64,000 nt of DNA from Streptomyces sp. SUK 48. GTDB taxonomy: Bacteria > Actinomycetota > Actinomycetes > Streptomycetales > Streptomycetaceae. The notes under the pieces were generated by a model that saw only the letters and a list, made by a program, of their open reading frames with translations, searched no databases and had not been told where the DNA came from. Of this stretch, positions 15,950 through 46,200 are shown one piece after another. The stretch is from NCBI RefSeq assembly GCF_009650765.1, contig NZ_CP045740.1, positions 6,176,001 through 6,240,000 on the forward strand, in the 5' to 3' direction. Within the stretch, counting starts at the first letter, position 1. Each line of letters opens with the position of its first letter. Position numbers and translations under genes: made by a program.

Positions 15950-17374
15950 ATGTCAGACAGCTCCCCCCTGCCGCCCGTACGGCTGCACTCCGAAGCGGAG
16001 CTGGCACGCGCCGCGCTGTCCACGCCCCTGCTGGAGCGGGCGGCCCGGCTCGCCCGCTGGGCCGGCCCCGGCACCCGGGTGGACGCGGGCGGCAGCCTGG
16101 TCGAGGAGCAGCTTCCCGCCGCGGCCGGCCAGCTCGGACTGACCGGCGACGACGCGGCCGCCTACGCCGCCGAGGCATGGCGCATCGCGCTGGACTCCGG
16201 CCTGGTCGAGATCGCCGACGAGGAGAGCGGGACGGTCCGCACGGGCGAGGCGCTGGCCCTGCTCACCGGTTCCCCGCACGAGGTGCTCACGGTGTGGCTC
16301 GCCGCGCTGGAGACCGTGCTCGCGGACGCGAGCGTGCCCGATCTGGACGGCCTGGTGGACGCGCTGGACGAGGGCGGGGAGATCGATTTCGCGTCACTCG
16401 ACTGGGACCCCGAGGCCGAGTCCGACTTCCTCGACGGGGTGCTCGGCAACCTCTACCTCCTGACGGTGAGTGAGGACGGCGCCGGGGACGAGCCGGTGCC
16501 GCTGCCCGCCCTGGCCGCGTCGATGATCGTGCCGGACGACATGGACGAGCCCACCGACGACGTCCTTGAACAGGTGTCCGACGCGATGATGCGGCTGGAC
16601 GACCAGTTCCGGACGCTGGAGCCGGTCGGCCTGGTCGAGTACCGGCCGGTGGACGAGGCGTTGATGGCGGAGGCCGACGAGGAACTCGCCGCGCCGGTGG
16701 AGGAGGCCGACGTCTCCCGCTACGGCATGGTGCGCCTGACCCCGCTCGGCGCGTACGGGCTGCGGGCGCGGCTGATGGAGGCCGGCTTCGAGGCCCCGGT
16801 GGTCGGCGAACTCGCCGACAAGGGCGCGGACGTACTGCTCGACGGCACCGCCGGGTTCGGGCCCGCGGCCGCCCTCGCCGAGACGGAGCTGTGGCTGAAC
16901 CGGCACGAACCGCTCTCCGGCGCACGGGAGTTGCTGGCCGCGGCCCGGGGCGCCGACGCCGGGGGGCCGCTGCGCCGGCTGCGCTGCCAGCAGGCGCTGT
17001 CCCTGGTCGGCGGGGAGGCGGAGCCCGCGCTGCGGGAGGTGCTGGACGACCCCGAACTCGGCGGGCTCGCCCGGGTGTGGCTCAGCGAGCGGGGCGCCGC
17101 CGAGGTGCCCGCGCCCTCCGAGGACCTGGTGTTCTGGCTGACCATCGACACCGTCGCGGCCCAACTGGCCGCCGAGGGCAACTCCGAGGAACTCCAGGCC
17201 CTGGTGGAGGGGCTCGCCGAGCAGCACAGCGGGTTCTTCGCGGCCGCGTGGCGGGTGGAGCACCCGGCGACGGCCGATGTGCTGGAGGCGATGGGCCGGC
17301 TGCACCCGGACAAGAAGGTGGCCAAGGAGGCCCGTAAGGCGGCGTTCAAGGCACGGTCGCAGCACGGAGGTTGA
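15950..17374 (+). CDS. Conserved hypothetical acidic protein
   Basis: A 474-aa soluble, very acidic and Ala/Leu-rich protein with no signal peptide or membrane helix. A winged-helix-like segment may occur around residues 225-280 (YGMVRLTPLGAYGLRARLMEAGF), and an armadillo/HEAT-like helical C-terminal part follows. I do not recognise the family; similar proteins are annotated as hypothetical in Streptomyces. It is monocistronic, followed by a tandem repeat tract. The start at 15950 follows GGAG at 15937-15940. Confidence 0.75.
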   Translation: MSDSSPLPPVRLHSEAELARAALSTPLLERAARLARWAGPGTRVDAGGSLVEEQLPAAAGQLGLTGDDAAAYAAEAWRIALDSGLVEIADEESGTVRTGEALALLTGSPHEVLTVWLAALETVLADASVPDLDGLVDALDEGGEIDFASLDWDPEAESDFLDGVLGNLYLLTVSEDGAGDEPVPLPALAASMIVPDDMDEPTDDVLEQVSDAMMRLDDQFRTLEPVGLVEYRPVDEALMAEADEELAAPVEEADVSRYGMVRLTPLGAYGLRARLMEAGFEAPVVGELADKGADVLLDGTAGFGPAAALAETELWLNRHEPLSGARELLAAARGADAGGPLRRLRCQQALSLVGGEAEPALREVLDDPELGGLARVWLSERGAAEVPAPSEDLVFWLTIDTVAAQLAAEGNSEELQALVEGLAEQHSGFFAAAWRVEHPATADVLEAMGRLHPDKKVAKEARKAAFKARSQHGG

Positions 17375-17378
17375 GCGG

Positions 17379-17446
17379 GCCGGTGGGGTGACCCGGCCGG
17401 TGCGGTGACCGGGCGGGTGGAGTGACCCGGCCGGTGGGGTGGCCGG
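17379..17446 (+). repeat. Tandem 17-bp repeat, four units
   Basis: Four head-to-tail units of about 17 bp at 17379, 17396, 17413 and 17430 follow GCCGGTGGGGTGACCCG with one to four changes each. They start immediately after the stop codon of the preceding gene. Confidence 0.85.
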
Positions 17447-17562
17447 GTCGGAGTGGGTGAGCGTGGCGGGAGCCGGTGCGGGACCGGCCCGCCGCGGTGC
17501 TTGGTCCGCCCTTGGGGTGGCGCATACGGTTTCTTGAACAAGGGTGTCCCTGGTGGCCCCGC

Positions 17563-41110: not shown

Positions 41111-42202
41111 ATGAGCGATCAGCCGGTGCTGCATGTCAAGGGCAGGGTCCTCGTCGGACCGCGGGACGAACGCGACGAACTGTGGGTGGTCGGCGGCCGG
41201 GTGTCGTACGACCGCCCCGCCGGGGCCCGGGACGTCCGGACCGTGACGGGCTGGGCGCTGCCCGGCCTGGTCGACGCCCACTGCCATGTGGGCCTCGACG
41301 CGCACGGCCCGGTCGACGCGGAGACCGCCGAGAAGCAGGCGCTCACCGACCGGGAGGCGGGCACCCTGCTGATGCGGGACGCGGGCTCGCCCTCCGACAC
41401 CCGCTGGATCGACGACCGCGCCGATCTGCCGAAGATCATCCGGGCCGGGCGGCACATCGCGCGCACCCGCCGCTACATCCGCAACTACGCCTGGGAGATC
41501 GAGCCGGACGACCTCGTCGCCTACGTCGCCCAGGAGGCCCGGCGCGGTGACGGCTGGGTCAAGCTGGTCGGCGACTGGATCGACCGCGAGGCCGGCGATC
41601 TCTCCCCCTGCTGGCCCCGGGAGGCGGTCGAGGCCGCGATCGCCGAGGCCCACCGGCTGGGCGCCCGGGTCACCGCGCACTGCTTCGCCGAGAACTCCCT
41701 GCGCGATCTGGTCGAGTCGGGCATCGACTGCATCGAGCACGCCACCGGTCTCACCGAGGACCTGATCCCGCTGTTCGCCGAGCGGGGCGTCGCCATCGTC
41801 CCCACCCTCGTCAACATCGCCACCTTCCCGCGGCTCGCGGACGGCGGCGAGAGCAAGTTCCCGAACTGGTCGGCCCATATGCGCCGGCTGCACGAGCGCC
41901 GCTACGACACCGTGCGCTCCGCGTACGACGCCGGCATCCCGGTGTTCGTCGGCACCGACGCCGGCGGCTCGCTGCCGCACGGCCTGGTCGCGGCGGAGGT
42001 CGCCGAGCTGGTCACCGCGGGCATCCCGCCGGTCGAGGCGCTCGGGGCGACCACCTGGGCCGCGCGCGCGTGGCTCGGGCGGCCCGGCCTGGAGGAGGGC
42101 GCCCCGGCGGACCTCGTGGTGTACGACGAGGACCCCCGGGCCGAGGTGGGGGTGCTGGCGGCACCGCGCCGGGTGGTGCTGAACGGAGCGGTGGTGGAGT
42201 AG
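41111..42202 (+). CDS. Amidohydrolase-family metal-dependent hydrolase
   Basis: A 363-aa amidohydrolase-superfamily protein. Metal motifs are DAHCHVGLD (HxH), a carboxylate/lysine region WVKLVGDWID, then VTAHCFAE and CIEHATG for two further histidines and FVGTDAGGSLPHG for the final aspartate. The pattern resembles imidazolonepropionase/prolidase-like members. It is 9 nt after an amino-acid importer, so hydrolysis of an imported amide or cyclic peptide derivative is plausible but inferred. Confidence 0.9.
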   Translation: MSDQPVLHVKGRVLVGPRDERDELWVVGGRVSYDRPAGARDVRTVTGWALPGLVDAHCHVGLDAHGPVDAETAEKQALTDREAGTLLMRDAGSPSDTRWIDDRADLPKIIRAGRHIARTRRYIRNYAWEIEPDDLVAYVAQEARRGDGWVKLVGDWIDREAGDLSPCWPREAVEAAIAEAHRLGARVTAHCFAENSLRDLVESGIDCIEHATGLTEDLIPLFAERGVAIVPTLVNIATFPRLADGGESKFPNWSAHMRRLHERRYDTVRSAYDAGIPVFVGTDAGGSLPHGLVAAEVAELVTAGIPPVEALGATTWAARAWLGRPGLEEGAPADLVVYDEDPRAEVGVLAAPRRVVLNGAVVE

Positions 42203-42361
42203 GGCGGCGCGCGCATGAGGGAACGCGTGTGCAAGATGATTCGAAGAGGCGTGCGGAATTTCCACGTTTGAGTGAAGTGACCCAGGTTTGCTGACCGTTC
42301 ACCCACACTGACGACAAGGTTGACGGGTCCCAAGCAGTTTCAAGTGGGGGGTCCCACCGCC

Positions 42362-43303
42362 TTGAACAGCACCAACTTCCTGTTGCCCGTGCGCCGTCTG
42401 GCCGCCGCGGCGACCGTCACCGCGCTGGCCGCCGCGCCCGCCGTCCTCGGCGCGGGCGCGGCGCACGCGTCCGGGAATCCCGGCCGCGCCACCGCCTCCG
42501 TCCTGCACACCGGGCTCGACGTGTCCCTGCTCGACAAGTCCGTCGACGTCCCGCTCGCCGTCTCCCTCAACGAGGTCACGGCACCGCGGAGCGCCGACCG
42601 CACCGCCCTGTCCACCCGCCTCGACGGGGTGTCCGGCGGCCACCCGTTCACCGTCCTCAGCGCGGACGTGGCCCAGTCCCGGGCCACCGTCACCGACCGG
42701 CGCGCCGAGGGCTCCGTCCGCCTCGTGCACGCCAGGCTGCACGTCCCCGGCCTGCCGTTGCTGTCCCTGATCGAGGTCGACACCGTCACCGCGCGGGCCA
42801 CCTGCGACGCCGGCAAGGCACCGAGCGCCGACGCGAAGATCGTCGGCACGGTCACCGTCCTCGGCCGCAAGGTCTCGGTCACCGCCGGGGGGCCGGTCGA
42901 GGTCACGGTGCCCGGCGTCGGCGAGGTCCGCCTCGACCTGGCGCGGCACGGCACCACGTCCCGCACGGCCGCCGCGACCGCGCTCCAGCTCAAGGTCTCC
43001 GTCAACCCGCTGAAGCTGAACGTGGCGGACGTCGAGGGCACGGTCACGCTGGCCAAGGCGACCTGCCGGTCTCCGATGGCGCCGCCCTCGAAGCCCCCGA
43101 CGCAGAGCCACGACCCGGGCTCCGGCACCAAGCCCGGCTCGGCCGCCCCGGTCTCCGACGTGAAACCGCAGGGCGGCGCCTCGGACACGAACCTCGCGGA
43201 GACGGGAGGCGACCCGGCGACGCCGTACATCGCGGGCGGCGCGGTGGCGCTGCTGGCGGCGGGCGGCGGCGCGGTGCTGGTGGCGCGCCGGCGCAGGAGC
43301 TGA
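42362..43303 (+). CDS. SCO1860-type LAETG-anchored surface protein
   Basis: A 313-aa secreted protein. Residues 1-37 are a signal peptide (RRLAAAATVTALAAAPAVLG). A beta-rich Ser/Thr/Val domain covers residues 40-235 with two cysteines (C148, C235). A Pro/Ser linker follows. The sortase signal is LAETG at 278-282, then a hydrophobic helix and RRRRS tail. Sortase E-type enzymes anchor such proteins to the Streptomyces wall. The start is a TTG at 42362; a TTG at 42320 is the alternative. Function unknown. Confidence 0.85.
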   Translation: MNSTNFLLPVRRLAAAATVTALAAAPAVLGAGAAHASGNPGRATASVLHTGLDVSLLDKSVDVPLAVSLNEVTAPRSADRTALSTRLDGVSGGHPFTVLSADVAQSRATVTDRRAEGSVRLVHARLHVPGLPLLSLIEVDTVTARATCDAGKAPSADAKIVGTVTVLGRKVSVTAGGPVEVTVPGVGEVRLDLARHGTTSRTAAATALQLKVSVNPLKLNVADVEGTVTLAKATCRSPMAPPSKPPTQSHDPGSGTKPGSAAPVSDVKPQGGASDTNLAETGGDPATPYIAGGAVALLAAGGGAVLVARRRRS

Positions 43304-43415
43304 CGGCAGGAGGAGGAACGGGGGCGGGACCGGAGGGGCCAGGGGAGCCTCACCGGTCCTGCCTCGCGCCGGGGCTCTGCGCGGACCGGGGGCCGTCAGT
43401 CCGGGGCGGCTGTCA

Positions 43416-44234
43416 ATGCGGTGCGGTCAGGAAGGTGTCCGTCGTGGGGTGTTCGCCCTTGGGGCGGGCGCCGGCGCGGAGGTCCCTCGGCCGGACCGGT
43501 CCCGCTCTGCGCCGGGGCCTGTGCGGGCCGGGGGGCGATGCACGGAGGTCCCTCGGCCGGTAGCGCCCCGCGCCCGGGCCTGTGCGGGTCGGGGTGTGGC
43601 CTCCCTCAAATCCCGGGCGCGCGTCGGCGCGGTCCGGGAGGCGGTGGTCGGTCGTGGGCGGTGGAGGCGTCCGTCGGTCGAGGGCGGTGGCCAGCGCGGT
43701 CAGGAGGGCGTTGGTCGTGGGGTGCTCGCCCCCGGGACGCGCCCCAGCGCGGAGGTCCCTCGGCCGGACCGGTCCCGCTCTGCGCCGGGGCCTGTGCGGG
43801 TCGGGGTGTGGCCTCCGCCAGATCCCGGGCGGGCGCGGTCCGTTAGGCGTTCGTCGTGGGGTGCTCGCCCTTGGGGCGGGCGCCAGCGCGGAGGTCCCTC
43901 GGCCGGACCGGTTCCGCCCTGCGCCGGGGCCTGTGCGGGCCGGGGGTCGCTTCGGGGGCGGCGATGCACGAAGGTCCCTCGGCCGGTAGCGCCCCGCGCC
44001 CGGACCGAGGCGCGGCCTCCGCCACATCTCGGGCGGGCGCGGGCGTGGTCCGGGAGGCGTCCGTCGAGGGGGGGCTCGCCTCCGGGACGGGCGCCGGCGC
44101 GGAGGTCCCTCGGCCGGACCGGTTCCGCCCTGCGCCGGGGCCTGTGCGAGCCGGGGCGCGGCCCCGTCAAATGCCGGGCGGCCGTCGGCGCGGTCCGGGA
44201 GGCGGTGGTCGGTCGTGGGCGGTGGAGGCGTCCG
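43416..44234. repeat. Mosaic repeat array beyond cobC, no convincing gene
   Basis: About 800 bp of GC-rich repeats. GGAGGTCCCTCGGCCGG recurs at 43478, 43544, 43751, 43890 and 44101, with a one-base variant at 43970. These sit in two longer contexts, one with ACCGGTYCCGCYCTGCGCCG after it (four copies) and one with TAGCGCCCCGCGCCC (two copies). The segment 43634-43722 nearly equals 44188-44280, which covers the last codons of cobC. So units look like decayed copies of the cobC 3' end plus flank. ORFs across it lack starts and are treated as chance. Confidence 0.85.
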
Positions 44235-45293
44235 TCAGTCGAGGGCGGTGGCCAGCGCGGTCAGGAAGGCGTTGGTCGTGGGCCGGTCGCGGACGGCGAG
44301 GCGTATCCAGTCGGCGCCGAGCCCGGGGAAGGTGTCCCCGCGGCGCACGGCGTAGCCGAGCTCGCGCAGCCGCTGTCGTACACCGGCCGCTCCCGGCACG
44401 CCCACCAGCACGAAGGACCCCTCGGCGGGCCCCGCGACCCGCACCCCGCGAAGGGCGAGCGCGGACAGGCCCGCGACCAGGTGCGCCCGGTCGCTCGCCA
44501 GGCGATGGGCCGCGTAGCCCGCCTCCGCCAGGGCACGGGCGGACACGCACGCCTCGGCGGCGGCCAGCGCCGGTGTGGACACCGGCCACAGCGGCTGGGC
44601 CCGCTCCAGCTCGGCGATGATCTCGGGCTCGGCCAGCGCGTAGCCGATGCGCAGACCCGCGAGCCCCCAGGTCTTGGTGAGGCTGCGCAGCACCACGAGA
44701 CCGGGCACGTCCGTCCGCCCGGCCAGCGCCTCCCGCTCGCCCGGCACCGCGTCCATGAACGCCTCGTCGACCACCAGCACCCGCCCGGGCCGGGCGAGCG
44801 AGGCGATCACCGGGGCGGGATGCAGGACCGACGTCGGGTTCGTCGGGTTGCCGATCACCACCAGATCGGCCCGCTCCGGTACCAGCGCGGCATCCAGCCG
44901 GAAGCCGTCCTCGGCCCGCAGCAGCACCCGCTCCACCGTGTGCCCGGCGTCCCGCAGCGCCGCCTCCGGCTCGGTGAACTGCGGGTGCACCACGACCGGT
45001 TGGCGGACCTTCAGCGCCCGCGCGAGCAGCACGAACGCCTCCGCCGCGCCCGCCGTCAGCAGCACCCGCGACACCGGCAGCCCGTGCCGCGCCGCCACCG
45101 CCGCCCGCGCGGCCCGCCCGTCCGGGTAGGCCGCGAGGGAGGTCAGCGAGGCGGCGATCCGCTCCCGCAGCCACGGCGGGGGCGTGTCCGACCGTACGTT
45201 GACGGCGAGGTCGACCAGCGCCGCGCCGTCGTCCCGTACCTCGGCGTCCCCGTGGTGGCGCAGATCGGGCCCGGGGGAGTCCTCAGTGGGCAT
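44235..45293 (-). CDS. cobC: CobC-type threonine-phosphate decarboxylase-like aminotransferase
   Basis: A 352-aa fold type I PLP protein of the Rv2231c/CobC family, which supplies the aminopropanol part of cobalamin. The PLP lysine is in VLRSLTKTWGLAGLRIGY. VVIGNPTNPTSVL and VLVVDEAFMDAVPGE match the family. Last gene of the second cob operon; its start overlaps the cbiX end. The C-terminal codons recur in the repeat array downstream. True decarboxylase activity is not proven from sequence. Confidence 0.87.
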   Translation of the reverse strand: MPTEDSPGPDLRHHGDAEVRDDGAALVDLAVNVRSDTPPPWLRERIAASLTSLAAYPDGRAARAAVAARHGLPVSRVLLTAGAAEAFVLLARALKVRQPVVVHPQFTEPEAALRDAGHTVERVLLRAEDGFRLDAALVPERADLVVIGNPTNPTSVLHPAPVIASLARPGRVLVVDEAFMDAVPGEREALAGRTDVPGLVVLRSLTKTWGLAGLRIGYALAEPEIIAELERAQPLWPVSTPALAAAEACVSARALAEAGYAAHRLASDRAHLVAGLSALALRGVRVAGPAEGSFVLVGVPGAAGVRQRLRELGYAVRRGDTFPGLGADWIRLAVRDRPTTNAFLTALATALD

Positions 45294-46200
45294 GGCTGTG
45301 CGTGTGCCCGCCGTGGTGGTGATGGCCGTGCCCGTGGTCGTGGCCGTCGTCGTCCGGGTGGAAGTGCGGCTGCTGCGGCAGGCCCACCTTGTCCTCGAAG
45401 CCCGGCAGCGCGATCCGGTACACGCACGAGTCGCAGTTCATGCGCAGATCGCCCTGGACGGCCTCCTCGTACCGTTCGAGCACCAGGTCGAGCAACTCCG
45501 GCTCGGGGCCGATGACATCGGCCGAGGACACGGGGGTCTCCGGGTGCGCGGCGGCCCACTCCTCGGTCTGCCGCCGCACCCGGTCCGGGAGGATGCCGGT
45601 GAACAGGAAGTAGGGGAGCACGACGATCTTCCGCGCCCCCAGCGCCACACAGCGGTCCAGGCCGCTCGGCACGTCCGGCGCCGCGAGGGACACGAACGCC
45701 GTCTCCACGCCGGCGTACCCCCGGCCCTCCCAGAGCAGCCGGGCCGCCTTGAACACCTCCGCGTTGGCGTCCGGGTCGGTGGAGCCGCGACCGACCAGCA
45801 GCACGGTCACCTCCGCCCGGTCCTGGTCGCCGATCACGTCGTCCAGGCGCCGCTCCAGCACGTTCAGCAGCGCCGGGTGCGGGCCCAGCGGGCGGCCGTA
45901 GGTGTACGAGATGCCCGGGTGCCGTTCCTTCTCACGGGCCAGCGCGGCCGGGATGTCGCCCTTGGCGTGCCCGGCGGACACCAGCATCAGCGGCACCGCC
46001 GCGAACCGGCGTACGCCCCGCTCCACCAGCTCGGCCACCGCGTCGCCGAGCGGCGGCGGGGACAGTTCGATGAAGCCGCCCGCGACGGGCAGGTCGGGAC
46101 GGCGCAGGCCCAGCTCCCGGACGAAGGCACGGAACGCCTCGGCTCCGGCGTCGTCACGGGTGCCATGGCCGGCGATGAGCAGGGCGGGCGGGGTGGTCAC
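45283..46200 (-). CDS. cbiX: Sirohydrochlorin chelatase CbiX-like with His-rich tail
   Basis: A 305-aa two-lobed chelatase that inserts cobalt or iron into sirohydrochlorin. It starts with PALLIAGHGTRDDAGAEAF, with the catalytic H12. The second half has VTVLLVGRGSTDPDAN. The last 25 residues (DDDGHDHGHGHHHHGG...) are a metal-storing His tail. Iron chelation for siroheme is possible, but the cob operon context favours cobalt. GTG 46200 overlaps the cobH stop by 4 nt. Confidence 0.9.
   Translation of the reverse strand: MTTPPALLIAGHGTRDDAGAEAFRAFVRELGLRRPDLPVAGGFIELSPPPLGDAVAELVERGVRRFAAVPLMLVSAGHAKGDIPAALAREKERHPGISYTYGRPLGPHPALLNVLERRLDDVIGDQDRAEVTVLLVGRGSTDPDANAEVFKAARLLWEGRGYAGVETAFVSLAAPDVPSGLDRCVALGARKIVVLPYFLFTGILPDRVRRQTEEWAAAHPETPVSSADVIGPEPELLDLVLERYEEAVQGDLRMNCDSCVYRIALPGFEDKVGLPQQPHFHPDDDGHDHGHGHHHHGGHTHSHAH

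What the first reader, a model, noticed from the sequence alone, without database searches (positions are those of the whole stretch)
43416..44280. Mosaic repeat array built from the cobC 3' end
The last codons of cobC and the sequence after its stop recur in several diverged copies over 800 bp. In one copy (about 43634-43722) nearly 90 bp match the true cobC end, but the stop TGA has become CGA. A 17-bp core recurs six times. This looks like repeated partial duplication with gene conversion, and it might create long C-terminal extensions of CobC or serve as an RNA or recombination element.
Basis: seen in the sequence. Interest (0 to 1): 0.7.

Follow-up and report, generated by a model that had tools for sequence, protein, structure and literature searches.

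The report
Recurrent tandem-duplication hotspot after cobC
The repeats after this Streptomyces cobalamin gene are real, decayed head-to-tail copies of the gene's own end and the DNA beyond it, and the same gene junction carries tandem duplications, mostly of unrelated sequence, in about one in seven of the related genomes examined.

Summary
On the minus strand, between cobC and the convergent SCO1860-family gene, about 870 bp (43420-44290) consist of diverged copies of the last cobC codons and downstream DNA. One copy matches the true end at 118 of 127 positions, TGA now CGA. The 17-bp core occurs six times here (one with a mismatch) and once elsewhere in 8.34 Mb, with a mismatch. The nearest relative, S. 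griseofuscus, has an 86-bp gap and no array. Local tandem duplication, decay and exchange between copies explain it best. Nothing supports a CobC extension or an RNA element.

The new point is recurrence. Strong tandem duplications follow cobC in 21 of 150 distinct convergent loci, against 3 of 164 random convergent gaps. The rate is 19 of 102 where the partner is SCO1860, 2 of 48 otherwise; a second method confirms the excess but not, by itself, the partner effect. Gaps after other LAETG genes have none (0 of 31). The arrays need 18 changes on a cobC tree. Terminator strength does not explain the bias. The cause is unknown.

The parts
44235..45293 (-). cobC, intact, stop TGA at 44235-44237; its last codons are the source of the A copies
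   Evidence: ORF; NF005915 CobC 514.7 bits
42320..43303 (+). Convergent partner gene, SCO1860-family LAETG-anchored surface protein (start codon uncertain)
   Evidence: ORF; NF041527 397.4 bits, NF041528 63.6 bits
44164..44290 (-). A1: true cobC end and about 70 nt after the stop
   Evidence: family D4; 118/127 match to A3
44085..44163 (-). B1: unit with the 17-bp core (core at 44101)
   Evidence: family D1, core positions
44015..44075 (-). a2: shortened A copy
   Evidence: families D3 and D7
43956..44006 (-). V1: variant core unit (core with one mismatch at 43970)
   Evidence: family D9, 94% to V2
43870..43950 (-). B2: core unit (core at 43890)
   Evidence: family D1 91%
43811..43868 (-). a3: shortened A copy beginning CCCACGACGAACGCC
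   Evidence: families D1 and D7
43735..43810 (-). B3: core unit (core at 43751)
   Evidence: family D1 86%
43603..43729 (-). A3: near-complete copy of the cobC end in which the stop has become CGA (43674-43676)
   Evidence: family D4; 118/127
43530..43580 (-). V2: variant core unit (core at 43544)
   Evidence: family D9
43460..43537 (-). B4: core unit (core at 43478)
   Evidence: family D1
43395..43455 (-). A4: most distal, decayed cobC-end copy, next to the original gap; perhaps descends from the ancestral end (read by eye)
   Evidence: sequence read against L004; family D8
43322..43363 (.). Original hairpin between the convergent genes; in the window it no longer stands out from shuffles (z -0.43 and -0.97 on the two strands), unlike its S. 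griseofuscus counterpart (z -4.39)
   Evidence: folds; comparison with L004

Best explanation
The array is a non-coding tandem-duplication array. An ancestral junction of under about 120 bp (cobC stop, one hairpin, SCO1860 stop), as kept in S. griseofuscus, was tandemly duplicated more than once, most simply in the window's own lineage; the units took in the cobC tail and the DNA after it. Because the genes converge, the copy next to cobC keeps cobC whole and the far end keeps the partner whole, so the copies between are free to decay (stop lost, deletions) and to exchange segments. The same junction is a recurrent duplication hotspot across Streptomyces. Shown: anatomy, confinement to this locus, absence in the three nearest relatives found, recurrence, and excess over the controls used. 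Inferred: that units arise by replication slippage, template switching or end joining without long homology, and are then reshuffled by unequal recombination or gene conversion. The cause of the junction's excess is not known; hairpin strength alone does not explain it.
For: Copies of cobC tail plus downstream DNA. Array absent in the nearest relatives on the cobC tree: L004 S. griseofuscus gap 86 bp, L205 118 bp, L206 189 bp. cobC identity to S. griseofuscus is 985/1056, similar to A1-A3 118/127, so the array is about as old as that split or younger. Recurrence: 21 of 150 distinct convergent cobC gaps; with gaps up to 2.5 kb, 21 of 149 against 3 of 164 random convergent (Fisher p 5.6e-5), 7 of 637 co-directional and 2 of 166 divergent gaps; without the window p = 1.1e-4. 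Higher cut-offs hold: 15 of 149 against 1 of 164 at score 100, 11 of 149 against 1 of 164 at 150. Second method, TRF (period >=40, score >=100): 19 of 149 cobC gaps against 2 of 164 (p 4.3e-5). Partner: 19 of 102 with SCO1860, 2 of 48 without (p 0.021). Gaps after other LAETG genes 0 of 31 (p 0.007). Other convergent gaps in the same loci 2 of 125, one of them (L215) carrying the cobC gap's own repeat. Tree: 21 array tips need 18 changes. Most similar copies, L228: 141-bp unit, 98.6% identical, from 71 nt before the end of the cobC stop to 35 nt inside the partner gene; no clear microhomology at its breakpoints by eye.
Against: The controls are random or neighbouring gaps, not a census; other junctions may be equally hot. 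The cobC loci are those most similar to the window's cobC, not a random species sample. The cut-off of 60 was set after a first pass. TRF alone does not show the partner effect (16 of 102 against 3 of 47, p 0.18), and it shares only 14 of its 19 loci with the first method, which has 7 more. Gap lengths differ (arrays lengthen gaps); at 200-1000 bp the contrast is 19 of 48 against 2 of 30 random and 1 of 8 neighbouring. Hairpins at array-free cobC|SCO1860 gaps are no stronger than at random convergent gaps (p 0.42). Of 210 possible pairs among the 21 arrays, 9 share a match at E < 1e-3, so origins are fewer than 21; the 18 changes may include losses. Genes were called by my own script; about 12 cobC gaps near 1.9 kb probably hide an uncalled gene.
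Confidence: 0.76

Rival explanations
1. The array is a functional reiterated element (extra terminators, a 3' UTR RNA or protein-binding sites insulating two convergent transcripts), kept by selection.
For: Convergent Streptomyces gaps do carry strong hairpins (median excess over shuffles -8.9 kcal/mol in 57 array-free cobC|SCO1860 gaps and -8.1 in 83 random convergent gaps, against -1.7 in 120 co-directional gaps). Core copies are well conserved within the array.
Against: B units fold like shuffles; no Rfam match; the simple promoter and terminator scans found nothing, though they expect nothing in such DNA either; of 210 pairs of arrays only 9 share a match; the nearest relatives do without it.
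Confidence: 0.1
2. The copies are silent 3'-end cassettes that rewrite or extend the CobC C-terminus (or, in L251, the SCO1860 sorting tail) by gene conversion.
For: A3 is in frame with cobC (offset 561, a multiple of 3) and would give an 87-residue extension. In L251 a unit with the partner gene's tail is repeated.
Against: CobC tail lengths do not differ in array loci. The copies have decayed stops and deletions. None of the 21 array loci shows an extended CobC (tails 10-21 residues).
Confidence: 0.04
3. The copies are scars of mobile elements that integrated at the cobC 3' end and were lost, each leaving a duplicated gene end.
For: Many integrative elements use gene 3' ends (recalled, no call).
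Against: In L228 and L251 the unit runs through cobC tail, whole gap and partner tail, not a short att core. My gene caller found no gene between cobC and SCO1860 in the window. No common core is shared by the arrays.
Confidence: 0.03
4. Assembly artefact.
For: No reads could be examined.
Against: The copies differ by 7-30% or more, unlike duplicated or collapsed reads; the genome is a single contig; comparable arrays occur in other assemblies.
Confidence: 0.03

Closest known systems
Bacterial minisatellites / VNTR loci (general notion recalled)
   Same: Head-to-tail intergenic copies with units of tens to hundreds of bp, divergence and length change.
   Different: In the cases looked at closely the units are made from the tails of the flanking genes and the gap between, differ between species, and the same junction has been duplicated repeatedly. 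Strain-level length variation was not testable.
Mycobacterial interspersed repetitive units (MIRU; recalled)
   Same: Tandem copies at gene ends that can overlap a stop codon.
   Different: MIRUs share one consensus at many loci of a genome; here the core is confined to one locus.
Satellites in prokaryotes (PMC6749651, passages seen)
   Same: That survey tabulates satellites in bacteria, 38 for S. coelicolor.
   Different: The word 'convergent' does not occur in its text, and the passages seen do not mention this junction; the rest was not read.

Membership tests
Tandem-repeat array (minisatellite/VNTR) | Three or more head-to-tail direct copies at one locus | tested here: met
   Families D1-D9; seven self-matches
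Tandem-repeat array (minisatellite/VNTR) | Copy number varies between strains of the species | not testable with these tools
   One genome per species is held; between species the array is absent in the nearest three relatives found
MIRU / dispersed intergenic repeat | Same consensus at many loci of the genome | tested here: not met
   Whole array: only two other hits of 37 and 33 bp; core: one other site, with a mismatch, in 8.34 Mb
MIRU / dispersed intergenic repeat | Same consensus in related genomes | tested here: not met
   Of 392 genus genomes searched, 271 have some match at E <= 0.001, but in the listed ones, apart from the own genome, all are short or weak (best by E-value 79% over 88 query bases; the match list was cut off)
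Curated RNA element / riboswitch | Match to a described RNA family | tested here: not met
   0 matches up to E = 1 in 42000-46000, 4227 families
Curated RNA element / riboswitch | More stable fold than shuffled sequence | tested here: not met
   Four B units, z -0.17 to 1.40; V2 0.50; A1 and A3 parts 1.54 and -0.58
Integrative-element scar | Duplication limited to a short att core | tested here: not met
   Units span both gene tails in L228 and L251
Integrative-element scar | Integrase or element genes at the site | not tested
   No gene called in the window gap; integrase families were not searched

The most novel reading that the evidence does not exclude
The cobC|SCO1860 junction carries a local property (transcription conflict, DNA structure or a break-prone site) that makes it a genus-wide hotspot for new tandem duplications whose units are built from the two genes' own 3' ends and the gap between, arising independently in perhaps 15 or more lineages.
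Probability: 0.42. Interest if true: 0.55.

Novelty: new variant of a known kind. Interest (0 to 1): 0.4.

Why it matters
How tandem repeats are born in bacteria is usually inferred from old arrays. An orthologous junction that has duplicated many times within one genus, with young (98.6% identical) and old examples and empty sister species, is a natural series for studying where and how such duplications start. It also warns annotators that gene tails lying beyond cobC, with or without a stop, are debris rather than genes.

Tried and rejected
Dispersed repeat: rejected (weak matches only). CobC extension: rejected. RNA element: no support. Terminator strength as cause of the hotspot: not supported (p 0.42). 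The LAETG-coding tail as a general cause: not supported (0 of 31, of which 4 are from other genera of the order). A first pass with a weaker criterion (any repeat >=40 bp at >=75%, gaps >=60 bp) gave 16 of 63 cobC gaps against 8 of 97 random convergent gaps; several of the 16 were weak hits in gaps near 2 kb, so the later cut-off is a score of 60. Cross-locus tail comparison: 5 of 78 loci, the window included, stood more than 10 above their best cross-locus score. Head-on transcription: dnaA lies at 4.217 Mb and the window at 6.18-6.24 Mb, so cobC would be head-on to the fork if replication starts there; every convergent pair has one such gene, so this explains nothing by itself. Literature: searches (listings only, apart from passages of PMC3276577, PMC10924467 and PMC6749651); in what I saw nothing reports repeats at this junction, which is no proof of absence.

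Rows dropped: of 170 cobC loci (window, 80, 29, 60), 3 lacked enough downstream sequence, 14 were near-identical to another (98% over at least 850 nt), 3 of the remaining 153 were not convergent, and one gap over 2.5 kb was left out of the Fisher tests (149). Of 50 LAETG loci, 14 were SCO1860 family and 5 gave no usable gap (31 kept). CobC tails were measured in 146 of 150 loci.

Full report
WHAT IS THERE. The window is part of a single-contig 8.34-Mb chromosome, placed in Streptomyces by its relatives. cobC (44235-45293, minus) converges with a plus-strand gene ending at 43303 that belongs to the SCO1860 family of LAETG-anchored surface proteins. Between them lie 931 bp, most of it repeats. 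Read on the minus strand from cobC, my segmentation is A1 (true end) - B1 - a2 - V1 - B2 - a3 - B3 - A3 - V2 - B4 - A4 - original hairpin. A is the last cobC codons plus about 70 nt beyond the stop; B carries the 17-bp core; V is a variant of B; lower-case a marks shortened A copies. A3 matches A1 at 118 of 127 positions, with the stop changed to CGA.

IS IT MORE THAN CHANCE. Yes. The core is found six times in the array (one with a mismatch) and once elsewhere in the chromosome, with a mismatch. Shuffled cobC gap regions reached the score cut-off in 0 of 309 cases.

HOW OLD AND HOW LOCAL. The nearest cobC relative, S. griseofuscus (L004), has an 86-bp gap with one strong hairpin (z -4.39) and no array; the next two (L205, L206) have 118 and 189 bp and no array. 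cobC DNA identity to S. griseofuscus is 985 of 1056, close to the A1-A3 identity, so the duplications are about as old as that split or younger; loss in the relatives is not excluded. In a 392-genome genus sample 271 genomes have some match to a 771-bp array query at E <= 0.001, but apart from the own genome the listed ones are short or weak (best by E-value 79% over 88 query bases; list cut off).

MOSAIC. The four main B copies have nine informative sites; five, two and two support the three possible pairings. Three of them rest on an uncertain stretch of alignment; without these the counts are three, two and one. Exchange between copies explains this best, but the sites are few and repeated mutation cannot be excluded.

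RECURRENCE. I collected cobC loci from a genome scan (80), from a whole-genome protein search (29 of its 30 loci, one being the own genome) and from 60 stretches of up to 20 kb taken from the same search's list, and added the window. All were picked as the loci most similar to the window's cobC. 167 of 170 were usable, 153 distinct, 150 with a convergent next gene. With a self-comparison score of 60 or more (at least 40 bp, at least 75% identity), 21 of 150 carry strong tandem duplications: 8 of 65, 4 of 26, 8 of 58, and the window. Controls with the same code: in 60 random 20-kb stretches of 11 genomes, convergent gaps 3 of 164, co-directional 7 of 637, divergent 2 of 166; in the cobC neighbourhood, convergent 2 of 91, co-directional 2 of 870, divergent 0 of 111. 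One of the 2 of 91, L292, spans the cobC stop, so it is the cobC gap with cobC uncalled. Fisher p for 21 of 149 against random convergent gaps is 5.6e-5; without the window 1.1e-4. At score cut-offs 100 and 150 the counts are 15 and 11 of 149 against 1 and 1 of 164. Tandem Repeats Finder, a second method, gives 19 of 149 cobC gaps against 2 of 164 random convergent, 7 of 637 co-directional and 3 of 166 divergent (p 4.3e-5 against convergent). It shares 14 loci with the first method, adds 5 (L217, L231, L264, L279, L284) and misses 7 (L019, L028, L232, L249, L271, L272, L285).

SPECIFICITY. With the SCO1860 partner the rate is 19 of 102, with other partners 2 of 48 (p 0.021); by TRF it is 16 of 102 against 3 of 47 (p 0.18), so the partner effect is suggestive only. 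Gaps after other LAETG genes have none (0 of 31, of which 23 convergent and 4 from other genera). Grouped by flanking proteins, the cobC|SCO1860 junction has 18 of 97; cobC with another right-hand partner (the group holding L239, whose partner is the amidohydrolase) 1 of 16; other conserved convergent junctions in the same loci 0 of 43, 0 of 19 and 1 of 14 (the first two have short gaps, medians 20 and 29 bp). Two further groups (0 of 13 and 0 of 5) look like cobC loci in which my caller lost cobC.

INDEPENDENCE. On a cobC DNA tree of 150 rows the 21 arrays need 18 changes, gains or losses. Of 210 possible pairs among the 21 arrays 9 share a match at E < 1e-3: the clade L019, L028, L233, L249; the pair L036/L271; and a few short ones, among them 43 bp at 84% between L019 and the window, which I did not follow up.

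ANATOMY OF OTHER CASES. L228 has one duplication with a 141-bp unit at 98.6%, running from 71 nt before the end of the cobC stop, through the gap, 35 nt into the partner gene; L251 has about three copies of a 193-bp unit that includes the partner's tail; L010 has two copies of 111 bp with 40 nt of cobC and a hairpin. In 9 of the 21 arrays a copy starts 9 nt or more before the end of the cobC stop codon (L251, L051, the window, L228, L293, L010, L028, L271, L272). At the L228 breakpoints I see no clear microhomology (by eye).

MECHANISM. A duplication that spans both 3' ends of convergent genes leaves each gene whole, so such events are tolerated and the copies between decay. That follows from the arrangement. 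It does not explain the excess, since random convergent gaps are not rich in arrays. Hairpins at 57 array-free cobC|SCO1860 gaps are no stronger than at 83 random convergent gaps (p 0.42). SCO1860 is named among secretory proteins normally made in large amount (PMC3276577, passages), and cobC would be head-on to replication if it starts near dnaA; conflict between transcription and replication is a possible cause, not tested.

VERDICT. A real array, most likely without function, produced by serial tandem duplication, decay and exchange; part of a recurrent hotspot at the cobC junction in Streptomyces.

Noticed in passing
L251, cobC gap (from G193): The tail of the partner gene (about 168 nt, which should include its sorting region) is repeated beside the intact gene at about 95-98% identity; by eye the cobC stop in the copies reads CGA, as in the window.
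   Followed up: partly
L025, L030, L035 cobC gaps (printed): A shared sequence around CCGTCCGGCGTTTGAGG occurs in several species' gaps; it looks like a dispersed Streptomyces intergenic repeat.
   Followed up: no
Random gaps in loci L144-L203: Convergent gaps carry much stronger hairpins than co-directional ones (median excess over shuffles -8.1 in 83 gaps against -1.7 kcal/mol in 120).
   Followed up: partly
L195 14003-14608, L157 4580-5409, L282 about 7.7 kb past cobC: Other strong intergenic tandem arrays at unrelated junctions (90-98% identity); possible further hotspots.
   Followed up: no
12 cobC loci (e.g. L023, L040, L237, L259): Gaps of 1.8-2.05 kb after cobC that probably hide a gene missed by my gene caller.
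   Followed up: no
window 17372-17460: A 34-nt tandem repeat, 2.5 copies, GC-rich.
   Followed up: no
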